From: a virus
DNA: 26,347 nt
Strand: one strand, 5' to 3'
IMG/VR virus record: IMGVR_UViG_3300017963_000688
Location: 1 to 26,347 of that record
Positions 4,564-17,141 of the stretch are shown one piece after another. A program made the translations under genes and the position numbers. Each line of letters opens with the position of its first letter. The stretch's first letter is position 1. The notes below the pieces were generated by a model, which was not told the origin of the DNA, did not search any database, and saw nothing but the letters and a program-made list of their open reading frames with translations.

Positions 4564-7359
4564 CTAGTTCAATGCGGCCCATGTTGCAGGCGTTCCGGTT
4601 GCCGTACACACATAAGCCTTGTTATCGCTTGTATTGTAAACCACTTCACTTTCTGTTCCGTTTGTTGCTGTCATTGGGCCTGCGTCAGTTACATTTGGTA
4701 GCTGGAATCTCGCAGAGCCATTGAATGTCTGTGTGCCTGTTGCTGATATTGAGGTGTAGTTGGTTGTGCCGCCATCGCCGAGGGATGAAATACCATTGAC
4801 TTCTAACTGGCTAGTAGGTGATAAATTGTCGCCGACCCTAACTTTCTTAGGGAATCTAACCGTGTCGTCTGGGTCTAGAATGATTAGGTCATTTCCGCCG
4901 CCAGCGTTATTCCCTTCGCCAAACTTCAATGCATTATCGGTATTGTCCAGGCTGATGTAAAATCTCTCTACGCCGGACAACAAAAAGAACAAAGGGGCGT
5001 CGCCAGCACCGTCTTGTTCTATAGTAATTCCATTGACCAGTGATGACGAGTTCTCGTACACATGAAGCGGCAGGGTTGCTGTACCTGCTTTCCCGAACAA
5101 AGCAGAGCCTATTGAATTGAATGATCCCGTGGTTGTGTGGTCGTCAACTATGAAGTCTCCGTTCGTGTTTAATTCTCCAATACCAGTTCTGCATAAGAAT
5201 GTATCAACGACACCTGTTCCACTTCCCCATCGAATCTCTCCATCGGCACGGATTAATATCCTTCTGTAATCATCACCTACCACTCCACCACCGAATACGG
5301 TACTTGCCTCCCCGCCTCCGACAAGGTTGAAAAACTCGCTTGAGCTGGATTTTAAGAAACCACTTGTTATGGCCGTGCCAAGCTCAACTGCCCCAAGCGT
5401 TGATGTATTCAACTTCAGTACACTGTGAATACCCGCACCTGTGCCTGCCAATGCCAAGTCTATAGCATCGTCTTCTGCCTGTGCTATAAGACTATCTGTT
5501 GGGATTACCAAATCCCCATTAACAGTAACCTCGTCTGTAGCAAGCTGGATAAGGTCTGTGTCAGTTGATATTCCTATTGTCGGACATTCAATGGTTGTGC
5601 TGGTTGTTTTGAGGAACACAGGGCTGTCAGTAAACTCCAACGCCGTCTCACCAGCATTGACCTGTGGTATTTTAAGGGTTTCGCCTGTATAAGCCGCTGG
5701 TGTGTCTGTAAGCCCTAAGAACGTCGTAATACCAGAACCGCCCGCACCTGAGCCTGCTGTTGAGTTCGGAATGAAGCCACGCAGGTCTTGATAGTAAGAG
5801 GATAATGGCTCTCCGTCTGTCGTCCATGCACCTCCAACGTATTTGAGGACGTACCGACCTATCAGGAAACCAACACCTCTGTATTGCCTTGGAATGGAAT
5901 AGACTGCTTTACTGGACGCATCAGACATACCAGCTTCTACGCTGTTGTAAGAGCCATTTCCTGACGGAAGATTGCAGAATATATGAGATTCCTCACCTGT
6001 CTTATTGCACACGCCCCAGATAACTAGAGAGTGCCATTTTGCATTGCCAATAGCAGAACCATCGCCTACTTTAGTCAGAACGTCAAGGTCTGTCAAAACC
6101 CTGTAAGGTGTGTCAGGGTCATTTAGAATATGAATGTCTCCGCCGGAGGTCATTGACTCGCCTGGGAACGTCTGTAAGTGCATCTGGTTTACTTGCCCGC
6201 TTGTTACGTCAATCTGCGTCCCCGTGACTTCTGACAAGGTTGACTCACACCCATCTTCCCATGCAGCATCAAGTATGCGAATCCGCCTGCCTATATGTGG
6301 CAGGTGGCCTTGGTTGGTATGAGTGTCCTGGATATGGTCATTCCAGTTCTGATTCCTTAATGCACCATTAAGTTTTGTTGTGGCTATGGTCTGGACTACA
6401 ACCTCTGCTACCTTAATGTGCTCAACTGACTCCGGCCACTCTGTACCAGTCGTCAGGACTTTTGTTGATTTTGGTATGTAAACAAAATTTGTAACAGGAA
6501 CAGTGTCGTCCAGAGACGGAGTAAGCTCTATCTCTGCTTCACCAACGTCTGTAGGGAGTGATGTGAAGCCGTCACTGAATATCATAGTCATGTCAACATG
6601 GCCGTTTGATGGTCTAAGTTTGCCCCATATTTTGTCACCTCCACCTTGGTCCTCCACGACAGTCCTGAAATCGAACGACTCTCTGAATACGCCATTCCAA
6701 AAGTTCTGGAGAGTGTCAATGGCTTTACCGGATATGTCGATCTGTAGAGTACCAGCAGTGCCGGTGTTAGTGATACCACCAATCTGTATTGGGTAGTCTG
6801 GGAACTCAGGCTTATTATTTGTCAGCTTGCCGGCCGTGGCTGCTGATACCCATACAGTATCACCAACACTTATTGTTGTTGTTGTCTCTATATTAGATGT
6901 ATCAAAGTCCCTGACCTTACCTAGCTGTGTAGCTATGCCCTCTGTACCCGTAGGTATATCCATCGTGGTAATAAGGACAACTCCAGCAAAGGTAGAATGA
7001 CTGTCGGCCTTGGCAGGGGCAACGGCAGGCCTGCCACTGACAGCACCTACTGGATACACAGGAGTTCCGTTTGGAATCGGAGAACCAGTGTTGTTATATA
7101 CAATAACAAAAAGCTCTTGCCCAACCTGCAATACAGGGCCTAGGCCAGTAGATAGGTTTATGGTATAGTCCATGTTGTTCCACCATGCGAGACCCTCTGG
7201 CTCGGAAGGGGGAGTATAGTCGATGTCGTAGGTTATAGAATCAATGCCTGTAGGAGTGGTAGTGACCTCGAACCTTTTGGCTGTGTCGTTCCACTGCAAG
7301 ACCTGGTCTTCTTCGGTCCCACGGTCTACTTGTGCATCTATTAGAGAATTTACTTCCAT
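4564..7359 (-). CDS. Tail fibre / large structural adhesion protein
   Basis: A 931-residue protein, rich in Thr, Ser, Gly and Asp, with beta-rich low-complexity character. The N-terminal part has fibre-like strands (QVLQWNDTAKRFEV). The middle contains the fibre signature FLGLTDTPAAYTGETLK followed by GETALEF. The C-terminus has QLEVNG repeats and ends VYNTSDNKAYVCTATG then PATWAAL, typical of fibre and collar-whisker tips. It probably forms trimers that contact the host surface. The ATG follows directly after the TAG of the J-domain protein gene, with AAAAGGAAC as ribosome site. No chaperone domain or autoproteolytic site was recognised. Confidence 0.8.
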   Translation of the reverse strand: MEVNSLIDAQVDRGTEEDQVLQWNDTAKRFEVTTTPTGIDSITYDIDYTPPSEPEGLAWWNNMDYTINLSTGLGPVLQVGQELFVIVYNNTGSPIPNGTPVYPVGAVSGRPAVAPAKADSHSTFAGVVLITTMDIPTGTEGIATQLGKVRDFDTSNIETTTTISVGDTVWVSAATAGKLTNNKPEFPDYPIQIGGITNTGTAGTLQIDISGKAIDTLQNFWNGVFRESFDFRTVVEDQGGGDKIWGKLRPSNGHVDMTMIFSDGFTSLPTDVGEAEIELTPSLDDTVPVTNFVYIPKSTKVLTTGTEWPESVEHIKVAEVVVQTIATTKLNGALRNQNWNDHIQDTHTNQGHLPHIGRRIRILDAAWEDGCESTLSEVTGTQIDVTSGQVNQMHLQTFPGESMTSGGDIHILNDPDTPYRVLTDLDVLTKVGDGSAIGNAKWHSLVIWGVCNKTGEESHIFCNLPSGNGSYNSVEAGMSDASSKAVYSIPRQYRGVGFLIGRYVLKYVGGAWTTDGEPLSSYYQDLRGFIPNSTAGSGAGGSGITTFLGLTDTPAAYTGETLKIPQVNAGETALEFTDSPVFLKTTSTTIECPTIGISTDTDLIQLATDEVTVNGDLVIPTDSLIAQAEDDAIDLALAGTGAGIHSVLKLNTSTLGAVELGTAITSGFLKSSSSEFFNLVGGGEASTVFGGGVVGDDYRRILIRADGEIRWGSGTGVVDTFLCRTGIGELNTNGDFIVDDHTTTGSFNSIGSALFGKAGTATLPLHVYENSSSLVNGITIEQDGAGDAPLFFLLSGVERFYISLDNTDNALKFGEGNNAGGGNDLIILDPDDTVRFPKKVRVGDNLSPTSQLEVNGISSLGDGGTTNYTSISATGTQTFNGSARFQLPNVTDAGPMTATNGTESEVVYNTSDNKAYVCTATGTPATWAALN

Positions 7360-10300
7360 CTATTGTTCCTTTTGCCATTTACGAACTGCCAGTGAGAAGG
7401 CTTCTGCTGCGTTTGCGTTGTATTGTGTTTCCAGGTTAATCAATTCCCTTTGTGTTTCTTTAGAGAACTTGTTCAAGAAATCACCTACGTCACGTTTAGC
7501 AACCAAGCCTAACGGCGAAGCATTGTCTAATGCAGACCTTATGCCAGACTCAATGCTAGCAAGCTCTTCTGCGTCATCACCTGCCCTATTTAAGAGGAAG
7601 AATAGGTGTTTGCTTGCATCTTTGGTGTCGCCGACAAGTATCTGCCTGATTGCCATTTCGTAAGAAAGCGTACGCTCTGTAGGAACTTTCTTTGTCCAAC
7701 CAAGGATAGCCTGTGAAGCCTTCTGCTTGGCCTTATCTGTGGCATTAGGGTTTTTCTTGTCATAAGCATACTCAAAGCCTTTTGTTCTGGCTATTGAATA
7801 TTCCTGAGTTATGTTCTTCTCATTGAACTTGGCATCTACTTTGTCAAATAAAGCCATTGCTTGTTTAAGTGCGGCAGACTCTTTCTGTGCTAATTGGACA
7901 ATTGCATCTTTGGTTTGACTTGGATTCCATGTAGATTTCACTACTGCATCGCCAACATTTTTAGCTGTCTGAAGTGTAGGCCCACCAAAAAGATTTGGCA
8001 ATCCGTAGACTATGTCAGCCAGAATACCAACTGCGCCTCCGTCCAATATATCTTTAATGATATTAGATGAGATGGCCTTGAGGTTTCGATTCTCTTCTTT
8101 AGTGAGGTTCTTTGTTAGTGACTCGCTTTTTCCTAAAGTAAAGTCTCGTGCAACGTTGTATATCTCACCGACAATAGCCATTGAAACTAGCCATCTTACC
8201 ATTTTAGATGGGTCACGATTCTGTACGGAATCTTTGATTACGTCATTCCATACATGACCAACTTGGTCTGCACCCCATGTCTTAAATTGAGCCGAGATTC
8301 GCATGAATGGCTTATTGTCCCACCAGCTACGCTTAGTACTTAACATAACAGGGAAGGCCGTGTCTTTGACTGTTCGGTGAAGGATTGCATCTAACAGCTC
8401 TGGAGGGATGTCGTCAGCCGAAGTCAGCTTGCTTATTAATTCGTCATTTCCAAGCTCACGTAATCTATTTTTAGCTTGCCTCGGAGACTGTCCAATAGTT
8501 TCAAGAACAGATATGATTCCGCCGATTCTCTTGTCAAGAACCTTTGATATTTCGCTGTTGCTATTAAGAAGTTTCAAGTCTCTGTCGATTGAGTTCTTCT
8601 TCATCTGAGCAAGGAACACTTGGTTGCCTCTTTCAGATTTAGAGAATATCTTGCCTGCAACTTTAGTCAAGAGATGGCCAGGCTGGTATCCTTCACCAAG
8701 AGATGTATTGGAAAAGATGGCACCACGGCGTATCATTTCCTCTTCTACTTCTCTTGAATGCTTAATCCATGCACTTATAATTGGTGGGAACTCTTTTAAC
8801 GTCTTAAACAAAGTGCTAGTTGGTCCCATTGCAATTGCTTTTGGGGCTCTGTCAAGCATATTCTTTGTTATCGTCAAAGGAGATAGTCCAATCTTAGATA
8901 GGAACTGATAACCTCTAACTGCTCCGCTAATCTCCTGGCTTGCCGCAGATGCCTGTGAACCTCTTCCAAAAGAAGCTTTAATGAAAGTATCTAGTGTATT
9001 AGCTTCGTCTGCATTTGTTACTCCACGCAAAGACTCACTTTTGACGGCAAGCTTAGGGAATGGCTGGCCTTTTACGTCAGCGCCCCACTGTCTTATGCCT
9101 TCAATAGAGAGCCAGTTCTTCTGAATAAGACCTTCAAGGACTCTGTCAGGGTCCCATTCTATAAATCTATCTGGCAATGGAACTCTAGTCCGTTCAAGGT
9201 AGCCAGAAACTCCACGTAATTGATCTTGCCTGAACCTCTGCAAGTCTGCTACATATTCTTCTACTGAATTAGCAGTACCATTCTTGACGGCTTCTTGGGC
9301 GACCTCGATCACTTCAGGGGAGTTCATGCCTTTATTGGCAGCTTGCTTGAGTATCTTTTCGCCAAGTGCATTAGGAACTTGCGGGAATGCCTCGCCAGTC
9401 TTAGTCAATGAAACTTTCTTACCGCCTACTGTACGCTTAATGCCGACCTTATTTGCTTCATCGAGCATTACGTCTAGCGCTTTACGTAGTTTATCACCAC
9501 GCTCTTTTATCCATTTAGGAGGGTTAGCTTCACGTCCATTGATATACTTGGCAATACGTTCACGGTTAGCCTTATTGACACCTTTAAGTATCTTCTCTGT
9601 ATCCAAAGCAGTGTTATTTATCTGCTTCTGTGCCCTCTGGCCTACCTCATTTAAGTCCTTGGAGATAGATTTACCTTCAGGGCCAAGAGATTCAAGGTGC
9701 TTGGTATATCGACGTATATTGCGACTTGCAACTTCCTTAGTCGCACCCTTAATATCAGACAAAGTAGAACCTAAACGTGTAGCTGTTTCTGTTACTTCTG
9801 TTACAATATCAGGTATGATTGTAGTGGCACCTGCCTGTTTGCCTCCAGCTAGGGCTGGTTCTTGACTAGGCACCTTAGTTAGCGGCGGCTCCTGTGGCTT
9901 GATATGAGGCGTTTTAACCTTAATAGGCTCTACGGGAGGTGTGGCTGGAGATTTCGCCTTCACGGACGTCACAGGGGCCTTAACGGGCTCTGTGACAGAA
10001 GCAGGCCGAAACTTAGGCTTGATAGTGACTGGCTGGCCACGGAATATTATATCTTTTGCCTTCCCATCCTTTAGTAAATCACGAGCCTTTATGACTGCTT
10101 CAAACTCATCTCTCATTCCTTTTACTTTGTCTGGGTGATACTTGAAAGCCTCTTTTTGTGCGGCCTTGCGAATCTGTTCTGGAGTAGCACCCTTTTTGAG
10201 CTTGAGGAGTTTAAGGGCCCTTAATTTTTCTGTTGGGGTTAGTTTAGACCATACACCTTTAATGCCAGAGCCTAGGTATGAGAATACCGCACCAACAGCC

Positions 10301-11136
10301 ATATCCCTAAGCACTGCCTTTGGGCCTTCAAAGCCATATTCAGTGTCTGTTGGATTAATAACCGTACTAGCAGCCTTTGTTATTTGGGCAATAGCTGCGT
10401 TGATCCCATATATCTTCCCTGCTTCAGCGGCTTTAATAGTGGCAGTGATTCCTTTTGGGGTTCCACCTACGAGCTTAGTTTTAATACCTAGTGCATTAGC
10501 GGACTGTATTCCACCAGCAAACTCTGCGATTTCGCCTATAGCTTTACTAAATCCAGATGGGTCGTACCCCATGGCCCAATCAACTGCCTCAGTCAAAGTC
10601 ATATCCTTAGCTTCTTCTGCTATCATACCTTCTGGCATCACTCTTTTGATGGCAGCGTAAGCAACATCTCCTATGTGAAACATTTTGCCATTTGCATATT
10701 TGAAGAATGTGCGTATCGGTGTTTGACCAAGAAGCTTTATCCCTGCGTCTACTTTCTCTATCCTACTTGGGTTTGGAGGTAAGTCCATTCCGTCACCAAC
10801 AAAGAAATTCTTTATTCCAACTTTAGATAGGAACTTTGGAGGAGTGGTGAACTCAGATGTGGGCTGTGATGGTGGGCTTAATGGCTGGTTAAGGTTCTCG
10901 TATCCACGCTCTGCTTCGGACAAGGGTATGCCTAGGTCAAGGTGCATCTTCCATATGTCTTCAGCTGCGGTTGTAACCTCTTCTTTGTCTGTGTTGCCAG
11001 CAAAAACATTGGGGCCAGCAGCTCTTGCGTTAAGGTCGTCCAGTTCAACTTGCTCATCTTGAGTCAACGATGTGGACACACCTGCTCTGCTGTTAAGTGA
11101 GTCAAGTTCAGATTGTTCTTGTACCGTTAATGGCAT
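7360..11136 (-). CDS. Large internal virion (ejection) protein with DnaJ domain, gp16 position
   Basis: A 1258-residue protein in the gp16 position, between a gp15-like protein and the fibre. Residues 3-40 hold two copies of LTxxEQxELDxLNxRA. Residues about 190-290 are hydrophobic/Ala-Gly rich. Residues about 305-358 form a J domain (KKGATPEQIRKAA, YHPDK with H334-P-D336, then DEFEAVIKARDLLKDGK). Residues 365-440 are a Pro/Lys/Thr linker. The rest is long and helical, with a C-terminal part like large polyvalent phage proteins. No lytic transglycosylase motif was seen. In T7 the gp16 homologue is ejected and spans the cell envelope; here the J domain suggests contact with host DnaK. Start and stop are tightly coupled (TAATG before, TAG-ATG after). 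Confidence 0.85.
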   Translation of the reverse strand: MPLTVQEQSELDSLNSRAGVSTSLTQDEQVELDDLNARAAGPNVFAGNTDKEEVTTAAEDIWKMHLDLGIPLSEAERGYENLNQPLSPPSQPTSEFTTPPKFLSKVGIKNFFVGDGMDLPPNPSRIEKVDAGIKLLGQTPIRTFFKYANGKMFHIGDVAYAAIKRVMPEGMIAEEAKDMTLTEAVDWAMGYDPSGFSKAIGEIAEFAGGIQSANALGIKTKLVGGTPKGITATIKAAEAGKIYGINAAIAQITKAASTVINPTDTEYGFEGPKAVLRDMAVGAVFSYLGSGIKGVWSKLTPTEKLRALKLLKLKKGATPEQIRKAAQKEAFKYHPDKVKGMRDEFEAVIKARDLLKDGKAKDIIFRGQPVTIKPKFRPASVTEPVKAPVTSVKAKSPATPPVEPIKVKTPHIKPQEPPLTKVPSQEPALAGGKQAGATTIIPDIVTEVTETATRLGSTLSDIKGATKEVASRNIRRYTKHLESLGPEGKSISKDLNEVGQRAQKQINNTALDTEKILKGVNKANRERIAKYINGREANPPKWIKERGDKLRKALDVMLDEANKVGIKRTVGGKKVSLTKTGEAFPQVPNALGEKILKQAANKGMNSPEVIEVAQEAVKNGTANSVEEYVADLQRFRQDQLRGVSGYLERTRVPLPDRFIEWDPDRVLEGLIQKNWLSIEGIRQWGADVKGQPFPKLAVKSESLRGVTNADEANTLDTFIKASFGRGSQASAASQEISGAVRGYQFLSKIGLSPLTITKNMLDRAPKAIAMGPTSTLFKTLKEFPPIISAWIKHSREVEEEMIRRGAIFSNTSLGEGYQPGHLLTKVAGKIFSKSERGNQVFLAQMKKNSIDRDLKLLNSNSEISKVLDKRIGGIISVLETIGQSPRQAKNRLRELGNDELISKLTSADDIPPELLDAILHRTVKDTAFPVMLSTKRSWWDNKPFMRISAQFKTWGADQVGHVWNDVIKDSVQNRDPSKMVRWLVSMAIVGEIYNVARDFTLGKSESLTKNLTKEENRNLKAISSNIIKDILDGGAVGILADIVYGLPNLFGGPTLQTAKNVGDAVVKSTWNPSQTKDAIVQLAQKESAALKQAMALFDKVDAKFNEKNITQEYSIARTKGFEYAYDKKNPNATDKAKQKASQAILGWTKKVPTERTLSYEMAIRQILVGDTKDASKHLFFLLNRAGDDAEELASIESGIRSALDNASPLGLVAKRDVGDFLNKFSKETQRELINLETQYNANAAEAFSLAVRKWQKEQ

Positions 11137-12545
11137 TACTGGGCTTTCTTTTTAAGTAATTCTTGCCTTCGTGATTCCTCTTCCGCTGACAATGGCTTGA
11201 GCTCTACTGCTGGTTCATCTGATTTAATGACCGCTGATTGAGTGTACATTTGGTCTTGTGTAGGGACTCTGCCTTGTGCTATCTCTGAATTGACCCATGT
11301 CCGTAGTTCTGCATTCGCAGTGTTCACTCTGGCATCGTCTTTCTTTTTACCAGTCCTGAAGAACCTAAGTTCTTTGTCATTAGCTTTCATTATAGCCTCC
11401 ATATCATTGACTACTTGCTTTGGATATGGAGTTTCAAGCTGTGCAATTGCCGTCTGAAACTCTGAGTCAGTAATACTTCTATCGCTGTATCTTGCAGTTA
11501 AAAGTTCATCGTAAGCTTGCTCTTTGTTGAGTTTAAATTTAGAGAAGTCTAATAGCGTATTAGTTATTACAGCGTTGCCATCTGGTGTGGTTTCCGTGGG
11601 TGCTGGCTGATATGAATCTTCTGCCCACTGTGTCCATTTGGCTTTATTAACTACCTCACCTGGCTTTGCATCAAGAGATGGAAGTATAGACCCGTCATCA
11701 AGTTTGCTTTGTGCAATCATATCTGGAGTAAGATTGCCTTGAGATATTTGCTCAACAAAGGCGGTGTTAATATCCATGTTGCGAGAGAACTTGAGGTCTT
11801 CAGACTTCTTACGAGCAAACTGCTCCATCATGTCAATACCTTTGAGTTCGGCAAGGCTTTCTTCAGAGCTGAATATATTTGTCTGGTTGACAAGTTCACG
11901 GGCTTGATCGAATGCCTCTACATCACCACCCATGCCAGCTTTCTTGAGATTGGCCAGTTCGCCTTCAACTTGCGACTGACGAGCCTTAGATAGTAATTTC
12001 GCTGCATCGCTTTTGTCAAGTGGATTAGGGCCAAGTTGTCTCCGGGCTATCATTCGTTCTGCTCTGTCAATGGCATCTGGGTCTGTACCTGAAGCCACGG
12101 CAGCTATGTTAGCAGACATCTCTGTTTGCCAGTTATCATCAGCCCTTGCCATCTGAGCAGTAGTAACGCCCATCTGCCACTTAGGAGCCTGTGAACCTAC
12201 CCATAAATTGTATGCCTGTGCCCCTCGTTTGTTCTTGGGGGCATGTTGGCTTATTCTCTCCAAGGTCTGTTCATAATCAGCTTGGTATGTATCGGGGTCT
12301 AAATTGCCTTTCATGCGAATCTTGAAGTCGTTCAGTTCGGCCTGTGCTTTACGCTGTGACTCGCTTAACTGAGTGTTAGCCTGTTGTAAGTCGTACTGTT
12401 TATACAGGTCTGCACCGGCCAGTAATGCCTGTCCTACGGCAGCACCAGTGCCACCAGTGCCTCTTACGTCTATATTAAGCGGGGTAGCTGTTGACGGAGT
12501 GAAGCCTAGTCTTGGTCTTGATCGTTGTATTCCAAATTTTGCCAT
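11136..12545 (-). CDS. Internal virion protein, gp15 position
   Basis: A 469-residue, mostly helical, polar protein with no enzymatic motif. Its N-terminus (MAKFGIQRSRPRLGF) is basic; the region about 25-60 is Ala/Gln rich, followed by long helices with many QA, LAN and KKA segments, and a Lys/Glu-rich tail. Its length and its place between a gp14-like protein and the 1258-residue giant match the T7-type internal core protein gp15, which helps build the trans-envelope channel during DNA entry. Assignment is by position and character, not by a diagnostic motif. AGGAT precedes the ATG, and the stop overlaps the next start as TAATG. Confidence 0.65.
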   Translation of the reverse strand: MAKFGIQRSRPRLGFTPSTATPLNIDVRGTGGTGAAVGQALLAGADLYKQYDLQQANTQLSESQRKAQAELNDFKIRMKGNLDPDTYQADYEQTLERISQHAPKNKRGAQAYNLWVGSQAPKWQMGVTTAQMARADDNWQTEMSANIAAVASGTDPDAIDRAERMIARRQLGPNPLDKSDAAKLLSKARQSQVEGELANLKKAGMGGDVEAFDQARELVNQTNIFSSEESLAELKGIDMMEQFARKKSEDLKFSRNMDINTAFVEQISQGNLTPDMIAQSKLDDGSILPSLDAKPGEVVNKAKWTQWAEDSYQPAPTETTPDGNAVITNTLLDFSKFKLNKEQAYDELLTARYSDRSITDSEFQTAIAQLETPYPKQVVNDMEAIMKANDKELRFFRTGKKKDDARVNTANAELRTWVNSEIAQGRVPTQDQMYTQSAVIKSDEPAVELKPLSAEEESRRQELLKKKAQ

Positions 12546-12553
12546 GTTTTATC

Positions 12554-13081
12554 CTATGCAAACCCAGTTAAAGTACTCATCCCAGCTTGATTTCCTGTTC
12601 CTAAGCCCGCTGTATTAGCTGTCCCAAACCCAGCTGGAGCAAAAGCGGCTCCAGCGGCCATGCCTGCAAGTTGGATTCCGAAGTTTATATTGGCTCTACG
12701 TGCTGCGTTCTTGGCTCTGGCCTTAGCAGCCTTGCCTCTTAGTCGCTCACCTGTAGCCTGAGACTTAGCTCTACTTAAGGCTGTTTCGCCTTCAAAGCCA
12801 ATCAAGAGGTTTTCAAGTTCGGACTCTTCTGCTTGCTCGCCAATTATATCAGTACCGACTGGAGCATCTAGTCCGCCTGCTGCACCAAGTCCAGCTCTGA
12901 GAGAACTCTTAATCCTCTCGGCTTCTTTGGCTTGCTGGATTGAATCGAATCCAGAGCGAACCTTTGCTGCCTTGCCCTGTTGTTCGGCTACCTGTGCGTT
13001 GTATTCGGCTATATTTTGAGCCGATGTACCTTCTGCGCGGATACCGGATGCACCACTTAATGTTTCGTATACGTTGCCCAT
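12554..13081 (-). CDS. Internal virion protein, gp14-like
   Basis: A 175-residue protein. It has an Ala/Gln/Lys-rich helical N-terminal half (AEYNAQVAEQQGKAAKVRSG, then QQAKEAERIKSSLRAGLGAAGG), an Arg/Ala-rich patch (RLRGKAAKARAKNAARRAN) and a hydrophobic Ala/Gly segment (FGIQLAGMAAGAAFAPAGFG). This is the usual build of the T7 gp14 family, the ejected protein that forms a pore in the outer membrane. The position directly before the gp15-position gene agrees. TAATG overlap with the small gene upstream and a GGGGGG-rich site support the start. Confidence 0.8.
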   Translation of the reverse strand: MGNVYETLSGASGIRAEGTSAQNIAEYNAQVAEQQGKAAKVRSGFDSIQQAKEAERIKSSLRAGLGAAGGLDAPVGTDIIGEQAEESELENLLIGFEGETALSRAKSQATGERLRGKAAKARAKNAARRANINFGIQLAGMAAGAAFAPAGFGTANTAGLGTGNQAGMSTLTGFA

Positions 13082-13266
13082 TAAAATATCCCCCCTGGCA
13101 TCTTATTAAGGAACGAAGAGTATCCTTCTTTCCTGGCTTCCTTTTTTGTTTTGCCAGTAAGAGTTGCTTCAATACCCTCAATAGAGTCCGCCTCCTTAGG
13201 AAGAACACCGATGCTCCTTGAAGCAGAGGTGGCACGTCCAACCGAGTCATTCAACACTTGTCCCAT
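13081..13266 (-). CDS. Small hypothetical virion-region protein
   Basis: A 61-residue basic protein (MGQVLNDSVGRATSASRSIG through FLNKMPGGIF) with no recognised domain. It is bracketed by TAATG overlaps on both sides, so it is translated with the gp13-like and gp14-like genes. A small peptide at this place is common in related gene orders and may be a minor virion component. Confidence 0.7.
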   Translation of the reverse strand: MGQVLNDSVGRATSASRSIGVLPKEADSIEGIEATLTGKTKKEARKEGYSSFLNKMPGGIF

Positions 13267-13676
13267 TACATATACCTCGCATACATAAACGCATCTTTGT
13301 CGCCAACGAAATTCTTCATTGTGCTTTCCTTTGTAAAACCAAGATGTTCAACTAATCTTATTGCTTCAGGAAAGTCACACTCTACGTAAGCCTGAAGCCT
13401 GCTTATATTGTTGTTTTCGCAGAAGTTATTTATACTATCACGGATTACACGGAAAGCAATCAACCGCTTGTCTTTGGCTAATTGGGTCATATCAACCCAG
13501 CACCATGCCGTATGGAGATTAATAAACCTAAACCCACCAACGCCCATGACCTGGCCATCGTCCTCCAGTGTGTATAAATAACTAATCTGTCCTGGGCATT
13601 CCTTCTGCATTCCACGGCTTGTGGAGTTGTCGCCCATATAGTCCAAATCTTCTTGTATACTCTCTCTAAATATCAT
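13266..13676 (-). CDS. GNAT-fold protein, T7 gp13-like
   Basis: A 136-residue protein with an acetyltransferase-like pattern: N-terminal MIFRESIQEDLDYM, a VMGVGGFRFIN strand, an AFRVIRDSINNFCENN helix, and the C-terminal pair EAIRLVEHLGF and STMKNFVGDKDAFMYAR. It resembles the phage gp13-type GNAT family found just before the internal virion proteins; the T7 protein is needed for proper assembly of the core. The pyrophosphate-binding Q/RxxGxG/A loop is not clear, so enzymatic activity is doubtful. The gene overlaps the nozzle body by ATGA. Confidence 0.82.
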   Translation of the reverse strand: MIFRESIQEDLDYMGDNSTSRGMQKECPGQISYLYTLEDDGQVMGVGGFRFINLHTAWCWVDMTQLAKDKRLIAFRVIRDSINNFCENNNISRLQAYVECDFPEAIRLVEHLGFTKESTMKNFVGDKDAFMYARYM

Positions 13677-15772
13677 CGTCCAGTTTTGCTCACTCTTGAT
13701 AAAATAGCTCTTACTGTTAATGGGGTTGGATTAGTAACCCCAGACGTTTTCTTGCTCGTTACTATCATTGGGTCGTCAATAGTGAATCCTGCGTCCTGAT
13801 GAACAGTTACGTCACCAGTGAATAGGTCGTCTATTTCAGACTTATTAATCAGTTCAGCCGATGTGAGGTCAACATCGTATGTATCGCTTTCACTATCACC
13901 ATAAGACACATCCTTTGAATCAAGGACGCTGAGGACGGCTTCTGCGGCTTTCTTTGTGCTACCATGTGTTGAACCACCTCCTGTGTCTGTATCAAGTCTC
14001 ATGGGCTTTACAATAGGCGTAAACGGCAAGCCTACGTGTACTACAGAGGCGGCATCGTCCAGCGTAATCTCACCGCCAGATACCGTCTTTGGACCCACAG
14101 AGATACCGTCAGCCAATACAGCCACAGTCTCACCTTCAAGATAGTCAAGGCCTGTAATAGTTGTGGTAGCCACATCGTCATAAATATAGCCAGCATCGAC
14201 AAAATGTGCGTCATCATCATCTGTGAATCTCCTTGGAGTAAACCTCTCAATTACCACTACTTCTTCGCTATTCAAGGTACGGTTCACTGATAGCCATACC
14301 TCGTCTTCGTTTGTACTTGGTATTACACAGCCTGAATTAACGCTACCGTTTGTTGGGTGATTGGAGTAAGCTATTACATTCTGGTCCTTTTGGTAGGTCA
14401 GGGAATGAAGTGTGCCATCTGCCATACCAAACCATAGGATTGATTCTGGGTGCTCTTGGTGTGCAAGCCATGTTACGGTAGAGGTTGCTGTGAAATGCTC
14501 TGCTAGCAAGGTTAGTTCTGGGGTAGTATATTTCTGTTCATTGGCATTGTATGTGTACTCCATTAACTTCTTGCCAACAACGTCAATGAAGACAATAGCG
14601 TTGTTTATCTTAATACCTTGTACATCAGCACAACCATACCCTGACTGCTCGTCTACTGTGAAGTTTGTTGGAGTAATAGGGGTGCCAATGCGGTTTGTCT
14701 GTATTGACCATGGCTTACCTGATGTGCCAATGGCTACAGTCTTGTCTACTGTGTCAACCCAGCGTATCTCATTACCAGAGCTTATCGAAACTGCAAAGGA
14801 ATTGTCATCGTTCACTCCTGCATCAAAGTTCTCATAGTCACCAGTCCTGCTTAACCACACGTCCCGCCTAGCCCCGTATATGGCCCTGTCAGAGAGAAAC
14901 GTGATAGACTTAGGGTATCCCTGCACATCACTCCATGAGCCTTCAGCCCAGCGTAAGATAGCTTGCCCAGATGATTTACTGCCAAGATAGGATAGGACTG
15001 TGACTTGCACTGAGGTTGAGCTATTGTAAGAGTCAACCCTTACTATGCCTATCGTCAGGCTGGTATTGTTGGTGAGGTCTGCACTAAAGCCAGATGACAT
15101 GCCTGCTTGCGGTGCTATTCTATATGTTACGTTACTTGAATTCTCTGTGGCTGTGAACTGTATATTCCTATCGTTCTTTGAAACAAACGACCTGAATACC
15201 TCCCAGTCATTACCAGCTACTTTCCTCTGTAGCTCTACGGTTCCAGTCCATGTCCCATGGGTATTAAACGTAAAATTGCCTTTAATATTTAACGCAGAGC
15301 TTGTAGATGTGCCAGTGGTAGATGTCTTAGAGTCTCCACTTGACATTGGGTAGGTGAGTTCAAATAAAGCCCCTACATGGCCAGTCTCAAATGTAGCAGA
15401 GCTAGCCACTAATTGACCAGTCCCACCAACTGTCTCTGTTCCTGTATAAGTCATAGTAACGTCATCGTCATTAGCAAGGTCGTTCCTGAGTAGGAATGGG
15501 CCTTTCTCAAAGACGACTTTATCAAGAGAGAATGTGGTTGGGCTTGTTCTGGATAGTTTGTATTGGGGGTAATCTACGTGAGTAATCCACATTACATCAC
15601 CTAGTTGCTCAAATTGTAGCTGAGGCAGGTCAGAGATGCTATACGGAGTTGCTATTGGGGCGCCGTCGCCGTCTAATAGGGCTCCGTCAAAGAAGAAGCT
15701 GGCGTATTCATGGCCAAACTCAATAGTATAGGCTATTGTGGCTGAGTATATAAATGGAACCATTCTTGTCAT
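13673..15772 (-). CDS. Tail tubular B / nozzle-like protein, body (lacks N-terminal cap)
   Basis: A 699-residue protein that begins inside the family sequence. Its first line (MVPFIYSATIAYTIEFGHEY) corresponds to the 'RLIPFxFSxxQAYVLEFGxxY' block that normally follows the GEVSPxxDARxDxxKYxxGCRRLENM cap. Further family landmarks are IATPYSISDLPQLQF, the DVMWITHVDYPQYKLSR block, FLSDRAIYGARRDVWLSRTGDYENF, and late beta-rich repeats. Relatives are often annotated as FCCH-domain or stabilisation proteins and are thought to form the tail nozzle. The start is real: TAAGGAAACAATATG gives its own ribosome site nine bases after the GLUG gene. The missing cap is supplied, if at all, by one of the two ORFs upstream. 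Confidence 0.85.
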   Translation of the reverse strand: MTRMVPFIYSATIAYTIEFGHEYASFFFDGALLDGDGAPIATPYSISDLPQLQFEQLGDVMWITHVDYPQYKLSRTSPTTFSLDKVVFEKGPFLLRNDLANDDDVTMTYTGTETVGGTGQLVASSATFETGHVGALFELTYPMSSGDSKTSTTGTSTSSALNIKGNFTFNTHGTWTGTVELQRKVAGNDWEVFRSFVSKNDRNIQFTATENSSNVTYRIAPQAGMSSGFSADLTNNTSLTIGIVRVDSYNSSTSVQVTVLSYLGSKSSGQAILRWAEGSWSDVQGYPKSITFLSDRAIYGARRDVWLSRTGDYENFDAGVNDDNSFAVSISSGNEIRWVDTVDKTVAIGTSGKPWSIQTNRIGTPITPTNFTVDEQSGYGCADVQGIKINNAIVFIDVVGKKLMEYTYNANEQKYTTPELTLLAEHFTATSTVTWLAHQEHPESILWFGMADGTLHSLTYQKDQNVIAYSNHPTNGSVNSGCVIPSTNEDEVWLSVNRTLNSEEVVVIERFTPRRFTDDDDAHFVDAGYIYDDVATTTITGLDYLEGETVAVLADGISVGPKTVSGGEITLDDAASVVHVGLPFTPIVKPMRLDTDTGGGSTHGSTKKAAEAVLSVLDSKDVSYGDSESDTYDVDLTSAELINKSEIDDLFTGDVTVHQDAGFTIDDPMIVTSKKTSGVTNPTPLTVRAILSRVSKTGR

Positions 15773-15781
15773 ATTGTTTCC

Positions 15782-16954
15782 TTATACAGCTTGACATATC
15801 TGTTTAAAATCTGCGTTCTCTTGCCACTTTAATCTTGGGTAATCGTTTCCCTCATCTATCATCCATATAGTACTAAAATCCCATCCCGAATAAGTTGCTT
15901 GTTGTTGCATTGAAGATGTTGTTGATTTTGCTATACCTGCTACGTCGCCGTCTGTACCGACATCATTAAGTGGTGCTGGTGGAGTTGCTATTAAGTCGCC
16001 ATCCCAGTATATGCCAGTATGGGTCAGTGTTCCACCATCAGAGTTATTTCCTATAAACCCTCCAATCTCACCTGGTATCCCAGAATCTTCAATTCCGCTT
16101 ATAATTACAGATGAATAACAATTAGTTATAGAATTGTTTGTACCGCCTTTTAAACCTATTAAACCACCAACCCTAGTTAATGAATCTGTTCCAGATGTAT
16201 TTATAATCGAACCTGTGGCATAACAATTAGCAATGTCGCCACCAGAAAAATAACATAACCCGCCTGCTGAAAAAAAGTTACGGCTAGACGTATTTATTAC
16301 ATTAGCTGAACATATACTCATATTAGCATTAGTTGTGTGAATCAGCCCACCAGACTGATTGTTTTGGCTTCCACTAATAGAACCTTGAACGTGCACGTTT
16401 GTAATGGCAGTTGCCCCAAAATCGTTTGAGGTTAGTAAAGCACATGCCGAACCTGCATTAGTTATTGCCATATTTGATAAGGTTAAATTTTCTATTGTAG
16501 CACTGTTTACAGACCTAAAAAAGCTAACAGTTCCATTAGAAGCGTCCATTGAAATATTGCTTATTGTGAAGTAGTTACCGTCAAAAGAGCCAATAAACGG
16601 TAATCCTGGCGTACATAATGGCACAAAACCAGAGCCAGTGGCGTCAAGATTATTCATTAGTTCATAATCGCCACTTCTCAGATGAGTACCCTCAACACCG
16701 ATTTTCATTAAATCCGACATTGTATATATCTGAATCTTAGTTGGGTCAGGCGTAGGCCCTTCATAGTAGCAAGCCGCCCCGTTCCCTACCACAATCATCT
16801 CAGTGCCTGGCCTCTTCTCTACGCTGCCATATTTACGAGGTATCATGTTCTCTAGCCTGCGACAGCCAGAGGCGTACTTTTCTGTGTCAGTGCGTGTGTC
16901 TATTTTGGGGCTGAACTCACCGCCTGAGAATGTTACTGTGTTTATATTAGTCAT
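15782..16954 (-). CDS. Nozzle N-terminal cap fused to GLUG-type beta-helix domain
   Basis: A 390-residue fusion. Residues 1-55 repeat the nozzle cap (GGEFSPKIDTRTD, EKYASGCRRLENMIP, KRPGTEMI). Residues 56-70 are a linker (YYEGPTPDP). Residues 71-378 look like GLUG-repeat bacterial surface proteins: 'YELMNNLDATGSG', 'FIGSFDGNYFTISNISM', repeated GGLI/GGFIG and ITNCYSS/IANCYATGS turns, and the typical closing block SGWDFSTIWMIDEGNDYPRL. This is a right-handed beta-helix fold that may bind host surface glycans or proteins. The DNA is AT-richer than its neighbours (about 37% GC over 16081-16440 by hand count). The start at 16954 is chosen over 16969 because GAGGATGG precedes it and it mirrors the MTNIN start of the other cap copy. 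Confidence 0.82.
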   Translation of the reverse strand: MTNINTVTFSGGEFSPKIDTRTDTEKYASGCRRLENMIPRKYGSVEKRPGTEMIVVGNGAACYYEGPTPDPTKIQIYTMSDLMKIGVEGTHLRSGDYELMNNLDATGSGFVPLCTPGLPFIGSFDGNYFTISNISMDASNGTVSFFRSVNSATIENLTLSNMAITNAGSACALLTSNDFGATAITNVHVQGSISGSQNNQSGGLIHTTNANMSICSANVINTSSRNFFSAGGLCYFSGGDIANCYATGSIINTSGTDSLTRVGGLIGLKGGTNNSITNCYSSVIISGIEDSGIPGEIGGFIGNNSDGGTLTHTGIYWDGDLIATPPAPLNDVGTDGDVAGIAKSTTSSMQQQATYSGWDFSTIWMIDEGNDYPRLKWQENADFKQICQAV

Positions 16955-17141
16955 ATGTTCCATCCTCATTGCTGACCGCTATCTTAGTAGTCCCAGGCCT
17001 CTTAGTGGCATTACCATAGACATCCGGTATCATGTTCTCCAAGCGTCTGCAACCACCAGTGTATTTCTCAATGTCCTTTCGGGCATCTATTTCTGGCGTT
17101 ACTTCACCTGAATTGAAATTGACTACATTTATATTGGTCAT
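16947..17141 (-). CDS. Free nozzle N-terminal cap peptide (duplicate copy)
   Basis: A 64-residue ORF, MTNINVVNFNSGEVTPEIDA through the GCRRLENMIP block to KRPGTTKIAV, ending DGTYD and TAA. It aligns end to end with residues 1-55 of the GLUG fusion (28 of 43 identical by hand over the core) and with the cap of intact family members. It stops just where those proteins continue into the body. The next gene's ATG lies inside its last codons (ATGACTAA), so the two are translationally coupled. It could be a functional cap that associates with the body in trans, or the residue of a duplication. Conservation of all the diagnostic cap residues argues against simple decay. Confidence 0.75.
   Translation of the reverse strand: MTNINVVNFNSGEVTPEIDARKDIEKYTGGCRRLENMIPDVYGNATKRPGTTKIAVSNEDGTYD

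What the first reader, a model, noticed from the sequence alone, without database searches (positions are those of the whole stretch)
10063..10224. Complete DnaJ-type J domain inside the gp16-position ejection protein
Residues about 305-358 have helix II (KKGATPEQIRKAA), an intact H334-P-D motif and helix III (EFEAVIKARDLL), all that is needed to stimulate Hsp70. It sits before a Pro-rich linker in a 1258-residue internal virion protein and no free DnaJ is seen. It could recruit host DnaK to refold the protein after ejection, to pull the DNA in, or to assist core assembly.
Basis: partly seen in the sequence, partly recalled or inferred. Interest (0 to 1): 0.75.

Follow-up and report, generated by a model that had tools for sequence, protein, structure and literature searches.

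The report
J domain in phage ejection protein
A short-tailed phage carries, inside one of the large proteins it probably ejects into its host with its DNA, a genuine J domain (the module that switches on the cell's Hsp70 chaperone); none of the 46 comparable phage proteins examined has one, so it looks like a swapped-in extra for hijacking the host chaperone rather than a standard part of the ejection machine.

Summary
Residues 309-361 of the 1258-aa ORF (7360..11136, minus strand) match Pfam DnaJ above its curated cut-off (32.1 bits, E 1.2e-7). Against my own J-domain profile they score 35.3 bits, versus 12.6 for the best of 2000 shuffles. The HPD is intact.

"All that is needed to stimulate Hsp70" is overstated. 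E. coli contact positions Y25, K26 and K48 read A, Q and E here. Helix IV is not matched, and the structure prediction was inconclusive.

Gene order supports a gp16-like slot. None of 46 proteins in that slot of related phages has a J domain. The only core homologue (G066, 29% identity over the C-terminal two thirds) lacks it. The same slot in relatives carries ART-PolyVal, Zeta toxin, RadC, M15 peptidase, MuF-C or "large polyvalent protein" domains. Phage J domains otherwise appear as small stand-alone proteins.

Best explanation: an optional, virion-delivered effector domain that engages host DnaK at the start of infection, like RB43 Rki but fused to an ejection protein. Self-translocation or refolding, an assembly role, or a degenerate structural module remain possible. 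Only one contig carries it. It is a new variant of a known kind; function untested.

The parts
7360..11136 (-). 1258-aa gp16-position protein that contains the J domain (putative ejection protein)
   Evidence: ORF; gene order as in relatives; ejection itself is inferred
10054..10212 (-). J domain, residues 309-361 (Pfam match); the finding's 305-358 is 10063-10224
   Evidence: PF00226 32.1 bits over cut-off 27.8; PDB J domains; 35.3 bits vs 12.6 best of 2000 shuffles
10129..10137 (-). HPD motif, H334-P335-D336
   Evidence: sequence; alignment to E. coli DnaJ and 70 viral DnaJ
10225..11136 (-). N-terminal region, residues 1-304; only marginal similarity to the N-terminal domain of G066/L285
   Evidence: E 0.11, 5.6 bits vs best of 200 shuffles 4.0
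9802..10044 (-). Pro-rich linker, residues 365-445
   Evidence: 18.6% Pro over residues 365-450
7363..9801 (-). C-terminal core, residues 446-1258, shared with G066 slot protein
   Evidence: 29-30% identity, E 2e-84
11136..12545 (-). 469-aa protein in the gp15 position
   Evidence: homologues in the same place in relatives
12554..13081 (-). internal virion protein B-like (gp14 position)
   Evidence: phrog_418 internal virion protein, E 1.6e-9
13266..13676 (-). GNAT-like internal virion protein
   Evidence: phrog_4177 E 2.4e-14, phrog_308 internal virion protein, Pfam Acetyltransf_4
13673..15772 (-). tail tubular protein B (nozzle) body
   Evidence: phrog_376 E 1.7e-147
4564..7359 (-). 931-aa protein after the J protein, perhaps tail fibre (inferred from position only)
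   Evidence: no Pfam or PHROG match

Best explanation
The J domain is an optional effector ('cargo') module built into the gp16-position ejection protein of a podovirus. The protein is packaged in the virion, leaves with the DNA, and presents the J domain to host DnaK in the first moments of infection, before any phage gene is transcribed. There it recruits or titrates the host Hsp70 system, in the way the early phage J-domain protein Rki of RB43 engages DnaK, to favour take-over or to blunt chaperone-dependent sensing of phage proteins. Shown here: the J domain and HPD; the ejection-module context; absence from all relatives examined; effector domains in the same slot of relatives. Inferred: ejection of this protein, delivery of the J domain to the cytoplasm, DnaK binding, and the benefit.
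For: J domain real. Ejection-module gene order. None of 46 other gp16-slot proteins has a J domain, best other score under 6 bits; 0 of 39 portal-related virus records and 0 of 52 nozzle-related and other records encode any J domain, many of them fragments. The only core homologue, G066, keeps residues 446-1253 but not the J domain. In relatives the slot carries ART-PolyVal (3), Zeta toxin, RadC, peptidase M15, MuF_C and LPD domains, typical of polyvalent effector proteins (PMC5512222). Precedent: RB43 Rki binds DnaK, stabilises sigma32 and helps phage growth (PMC3486835); the defence protein bNACHT25 needs DnaJ with a working HPD (PMC12169576).
Against: Only one contig carries this architecture. 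Contact positions Y25, K26 and K48 are altered, so DnaK may not respond. Whether residues 305-361 reach the cytoplasm is unknown; in T7 gp16 the N-terminal residues 1-156 stay in the periplasm and 411-1118 are cytoplasmic (PMC8954989), and DnaK is cytoplasmic. The polyvalent-protein survey does not mention DnaJ or a J domain. Most slot proteins of the nearest relatives carry no recognisable effector domain.
Confidence: 0.45

Rival explanations
1. Self-translocation or refolding: the J domain emerges on the cytoplasmic side, recruits DnaK onto its own unfolded chain (the Pro-rich linker or the core), and DnaK ratchets the protein in or refolds it, as Pam18 does with mitochondrial Hsp70 (general knowledge).
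For: gp16 of T7 must partly unfold and refold on ejection (PMC8954989); the J domain lies in the chain itself just before a flexible linker.
Against: Relatives with the same machine and similar-size proteins lack any J domain, including the core homologue G066, so the core does not need it. Contact residues are altered.
Confidence: 0.22
2. Degenerate or structural J-like module: a helical hairpin that keeps the fold but is not a working co-chaperone.
For: Y25 is Ala, K26 Gln, K48 Glu; helix IV not matched. G066 and L285 have a HPD-less helical segment that all three MAFFT runs place opposite the J domain.
Against: HPD, F47, R22 and a basic residue at R27 are kept, which would be odd for a dead module; the alignment of the N-terminal regions is not significant (E 0.11) and the J profile gives G066 and L285 under 1 bit.
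Confidence: 0.2
3. Assembly chaperone: in the producing cell the J domain recruits host DnaK to keep the large ejection proteins soluble or to load them into the core.
For: Large virion protein; DnaK is abundant in the producing cell (general knowledge).
Against: Other gp16-slot proteins of 1000-2400 aa are made without it.
Confidence: 0.1
4. Chance match or artefact: a charged helical hairpin with HPD by accident.
For: The region is rich in Lys/Arg and helical; the single-sequence AlphaFold model (pLDDT 65) gave no J-fold hit in Foldseek.
Against: 35.3 bits versus 12.6 best of 2000 shuffles; over the Pfam cut-off; independent PDB matches. The model is too poor to count against it.
Confidence: 0.03

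Closest known systems
Rki (gp057w) of T4-related phage RB43, the first phage J-domain protein shown to work (PMC3486835)
   Same: Phage-encoded J domain with HPD and poorly conserved helix IV; proposed to act on host DnaK early in infection
   Different: Rki is a 237-aa stand-alone early protein with an N-terminal J domain, made after infection; here the J domain is internal in a 1258-aa putative virion protein
Polyvalent proteins of phages and conjugative elements (PMC5512222)
   Same: Large protein encoded among virion genes; relatives' proteins in the same slot carry ART-PolyVal and LPD domains
   Different: No LPD or enzymatic domain in the window protein; no J domain mentioned in the paper
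T7 gp16 ejection protein (PMC8954989)
   Same: Similar size (1258 vs 1318 aa) and slot after gp14- and gp15-like genes
   Different: No transglycosylase domain found and no gp16-type PHROG matched
DnaJ-like chaperones of jumbo and T4-like phages
   Same: J domain of the same Pfam family
   Different: Small proteins with an N-terminal J domain, outside virion modules where context was looked at
HMO-2011-type DNA polymerases with a 'DnaJ domain' (PMC6918029)
   Same: DnaJ-derived module embedded in another phage protein
   Different: That is the central CXXCXGXG module, not the J domain

Membership tests
J domain (DnaJ, PF00226) | Score above the curated Pfam cut-off | tested here: met
   32.1 vs 27.8 bits; 37.4 bits by the genome search
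J domain (DnaJ, PF00226) | HPD tripeptide between helices II and III | tested here: met
   H334-P335-D336, aligned with the HPD of E. coli DnaJ and 70 viral DnaJ
J domain (DnaJ, PF00226) | Four-helix J fold | tested here: inconclusive
   Single-sequence AF2 predicts helices at 12-23, 30-44 and 53-67 of the fragment, pLDDT 65; no Foldseek J-fold hit; helix IV not matched
J domain (DnaJ, PF00226) | Conserved DnaK-contact residues besides HPD | tested here: inconclusive
   Kept: R22, R27 (as K), R36 (as K), F47; changed: Y25A, K26Q, K48E, K51I
J domain (DnaJ, PF00226) | Binds Hsp70 and stimulates its ATPase | not testable with these tools
   Needs biochemistry
T7 gp16-type ejection protein | Large protein at the end of the internal virion protein cluster | tested here: met
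   Gene order in window and relatives
T7 gp16-type ejection protein | Transglycosylase domain or sequence family of gp16 | tested here: not met
   No such Pfam or PHROG match; so filed as gp16-position, not as gp16 family
Phage polyvalent protein | Slot among virion genes shared with proteins carrying LPD/effector domains | tested here: met
   ART-PolyVal, LPD1/5/22/23/38, Zeta toxin, RadC, M15 in relatives' slot
Phage polyvalent protein | LPD or known polyvalent domain in the protein itself | tested here: not met
   Only the J domain found; core vs LPD38 profile probability 0.5%; so not filed as a member
Phage polyvalent protein | Delivered into the host | not testable with these tools
   Needs virion proteomics and an ejection assay

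The most novel reading that the evidence does not exclude
A working J domain is delivered from the virion into the host by an ejection protein and seizes DnaK before phage transcription starts: a pre-packaged Hsp70 co-chaperone effector, for instance against chaperone-dependent defence sensors, a class not described for phages in the sources searched.
Probability: 0.3. Interest if true: 0.8.

Novelty: new variant of a known kind. Interest (0 to 1): 0.5.

Why it matters
The phage J-domain protein whose action is known (Rki of RB43) is made after infection. One packaged in the particle would act at time zero, before expression. It would tie together two topics: how large ejection proteins carry swappable effectors, and how phages control the host Hsp70 system, on which at least one defence protein (bNACHT25) depends. 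It gives a direct test (HPD mutation in one virion protein) of whether Hsp70 takes part in podovirus entry or early take-over.

Tried and rejected
Close relatives of the protein: none in phage records, viral contigs or bacterial genomes. A DNA pattern for KYHPDKVK gave one contig, a chance match in another protein.

A degenerate J domain in G066/L285 was considered, because all MAFFT modes put a HPD-less hairpin there. It is not significant, so it is kept only as a hint.

The segment in G066 between its N-terminal domain and core looked ADP-ribosyltransferase-like to me. There was no Pfam or PDB sequence hit. A poor AF2 model put PARP/ART folds at the top of Foldseek, but with E > 1. It is not claimed.

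Relationship of the core to LPD38 was tested and not supported. The 1134-aa L224 protein with a J domain was considered as a second case, but it lies next to PhoH-like and nuclease-like genes (read by eye), not in an evident virion module.

Full report
What is there. The window is a 26,347-base viral record, a fragment. Its minus strand is a podovirus morphogenesis module: large terminase, portal, scaffold/protease-like, major head protein, tail tubular A, tail tubular B (nozzle), a GNAT-like protein, internal virion protein B, a 469-aa and a 1258-aa protein, and a 931-aa protein. The 1258-aa ORF has one recognisable domain. Pfam DnaJ matches residues 309-361 at 32.1 bits over a cut-off of 27.8, E 1.2e-7. 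PDB J domains of HSP40/DNAJB1 and DNAJA1 match at E about 2e-7. A profile from 70 viral DnaJ proteins gives 35.3 bits; 2000 shuffles reach at most 12.6, and the reversed protein 0.9. The coordinates in the finding are exact.

How complete it is. Aligned to E. coli DnaJ, the HPD, F47, R22, K23-A24, A29, K31-Y32 and L57 are kept, and R27 and R36 are Lys. Y25 is Ala, K26 is Gln, K48 is Glu and K51 is Ile. A recent simulation study lists D35, K26, Y25, H33 and F47 as J residues that contact the DnaK nucleotide-binding domain and linker (PMC13012618). So three of those five are kept and two are lost. The fit to a generic DnaK is therefore uncertain. Helix IV is not matched, but it is also poorly conserved in the functional phage protein Rki (PMC3486835). 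The AlphaFold model without alignment has three helices in the right places but low confidence (pLDDT 65) and no Foldseek J hit. I count that as no evidence either way.

Relatives. No close relative of the 1258-aa protein was found in phage records, viral contigs or bacterial genomes. Relatives of the phage were reached through the nozzle (80 loci) and the portal (41 loci, most with 41-65% portal identity). Their gene order is the same. In 39 portal-related virus records and 52 other records, nearly all nozzle-related, there is no J domain at all, although many are fragments. I then compared 46 other proteins of the gp16 slot: 14 from portal relatives, 31 from nozzle relatives and bacterial prophages, and L285. 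None has a J domain; all score under 6 bits.

Modularity. The slot protein is very variable. Only one record, G066 (42.7 kb), has a homologue of the window protein: residues 446-1253 at 29% identity, E 2e-84. Its N-terminal half is different and has no J domain. Another record, L285, shares G066's N-terminal domain (E 8e-97) but not the core. So N-terminal domain, middle and core seem to be exchanged independently. In nozzle relatives the slot carries ART-PolyVal (three proteins), LPD1, 5, 22, 23 and 38, Zeta toxin, RadC, peptidase M15, MuF_C and others. These are domains of the polyvalent protein class, effectors thought to enter the host with phage DNA (PMC5512222). That paper does not mention DnaJ or a J domain. 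The 14 slot proteins of the nearest (portal) relatives show no convincing Pfam domain.

J domains in other phages. In the phage collection 209 of 50,697 records match a consensus J domain at E <= 1. In the rows shown that are annotated, the product is a chaperone/DnaJ-like or hypothetical protein; the one labelled 'protease/scaffold' (RHph_N65) lies in the replication region. Some records carry no annotation. One is a chance match. One (L224, 1134 aa) is large but not in an evident virion module. A J domain inside an ejection protein appears to be new in the collections searched; full-text searches for it found no paper.

Mechanism. Because the machine works without a J domain in the relatives, I favour an accessory effector over a core function. 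Rki of RB43 shows what a phage J domain can do: it binds DnaK, is toxic through its J domain, stabilises sigma32 and promotes phage growth (PMC3486835). The defence protein bNACHT25 needs host DnaJ with an intact HPD (PMC12169576), so interference with the DnaK/DnaJ cycle could also be counter-defence. Delivered with the virion, such a domain would act earlier than any expressed protein. The weak link is topology: in T7 gp16 the first 156 residues are periplasmic and residues 411-1118 cytoplasmic (PMC8954989), so a J domain at 309-361 could lie on either side, and DnaK is cytoplasmic. Self-translocation or refolding by DnaK is the main rival. A degenerate module comes next: in G066 and L285 a HPD-less hairpin lies opposite the J domain in the alignments, but that N-terminal similarity is not significant.

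Verdict. A real, HPD-bearing J domain in a putative ejection protein of one metagenomic phage; a new variant of a known kind (phage J-domain proteins; effector-carrying ejection proteins). Function inferred, not shown.

Noticed in passing
window 13673-16969 (-): The nozzle (tail tubular B) gene is split: a 395-aa ORF holds nozzle residues 1-59 plus a GLUG/M26_N-like domain and ends in TAA; three codons later, in the same frame, the nozzle body starts with its own ATG behind an AAGGAA.
   Followed up: partly
L152 5668-10146 (G067), L008 7066-10774, L009 9791-13312: Nozzle as an insertion site for surface-type domains: G067 has two tandem 'nozzle N-terminus + GLUG-like' ORFs before the body, L008 is split at another point with a GLUG-like domain in the second ORF, and L009 seems to have a LamG-like insertion near the C-terminus (read by eye).
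   Followed up: partly
L284 9018-9443 (G066 slot protein, between N-terminal domain and core): Segment that looks ADP-ribosyltransferase-like; no sequence hit, only weak fold hits to PARP/ART folds with E > 1.
   Followed up: partly
L224 898-4299: 1134-aa protein with a J domain near its N-terminus (PF00226, 36 bits) next to PhoH-like and nuclease-like genes in a 74.5-kb viral contig.
   Followed up: no
L130, L131: Elusimicrobiales MAG contigs hold podovirus modules distantly related to the window, with a slot protein of more than 2300 aa; that of L130 bears LPD5 and LPD1.
   Followed up: no
window 7360-11136, residues 1-45: The N-terminus of the 1258-aa protein has a two-fold repeat (LTVQEQSELDSLNSRAG / LTQDEQVELDDLNARAA) of unknown role.
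   Followed up: no
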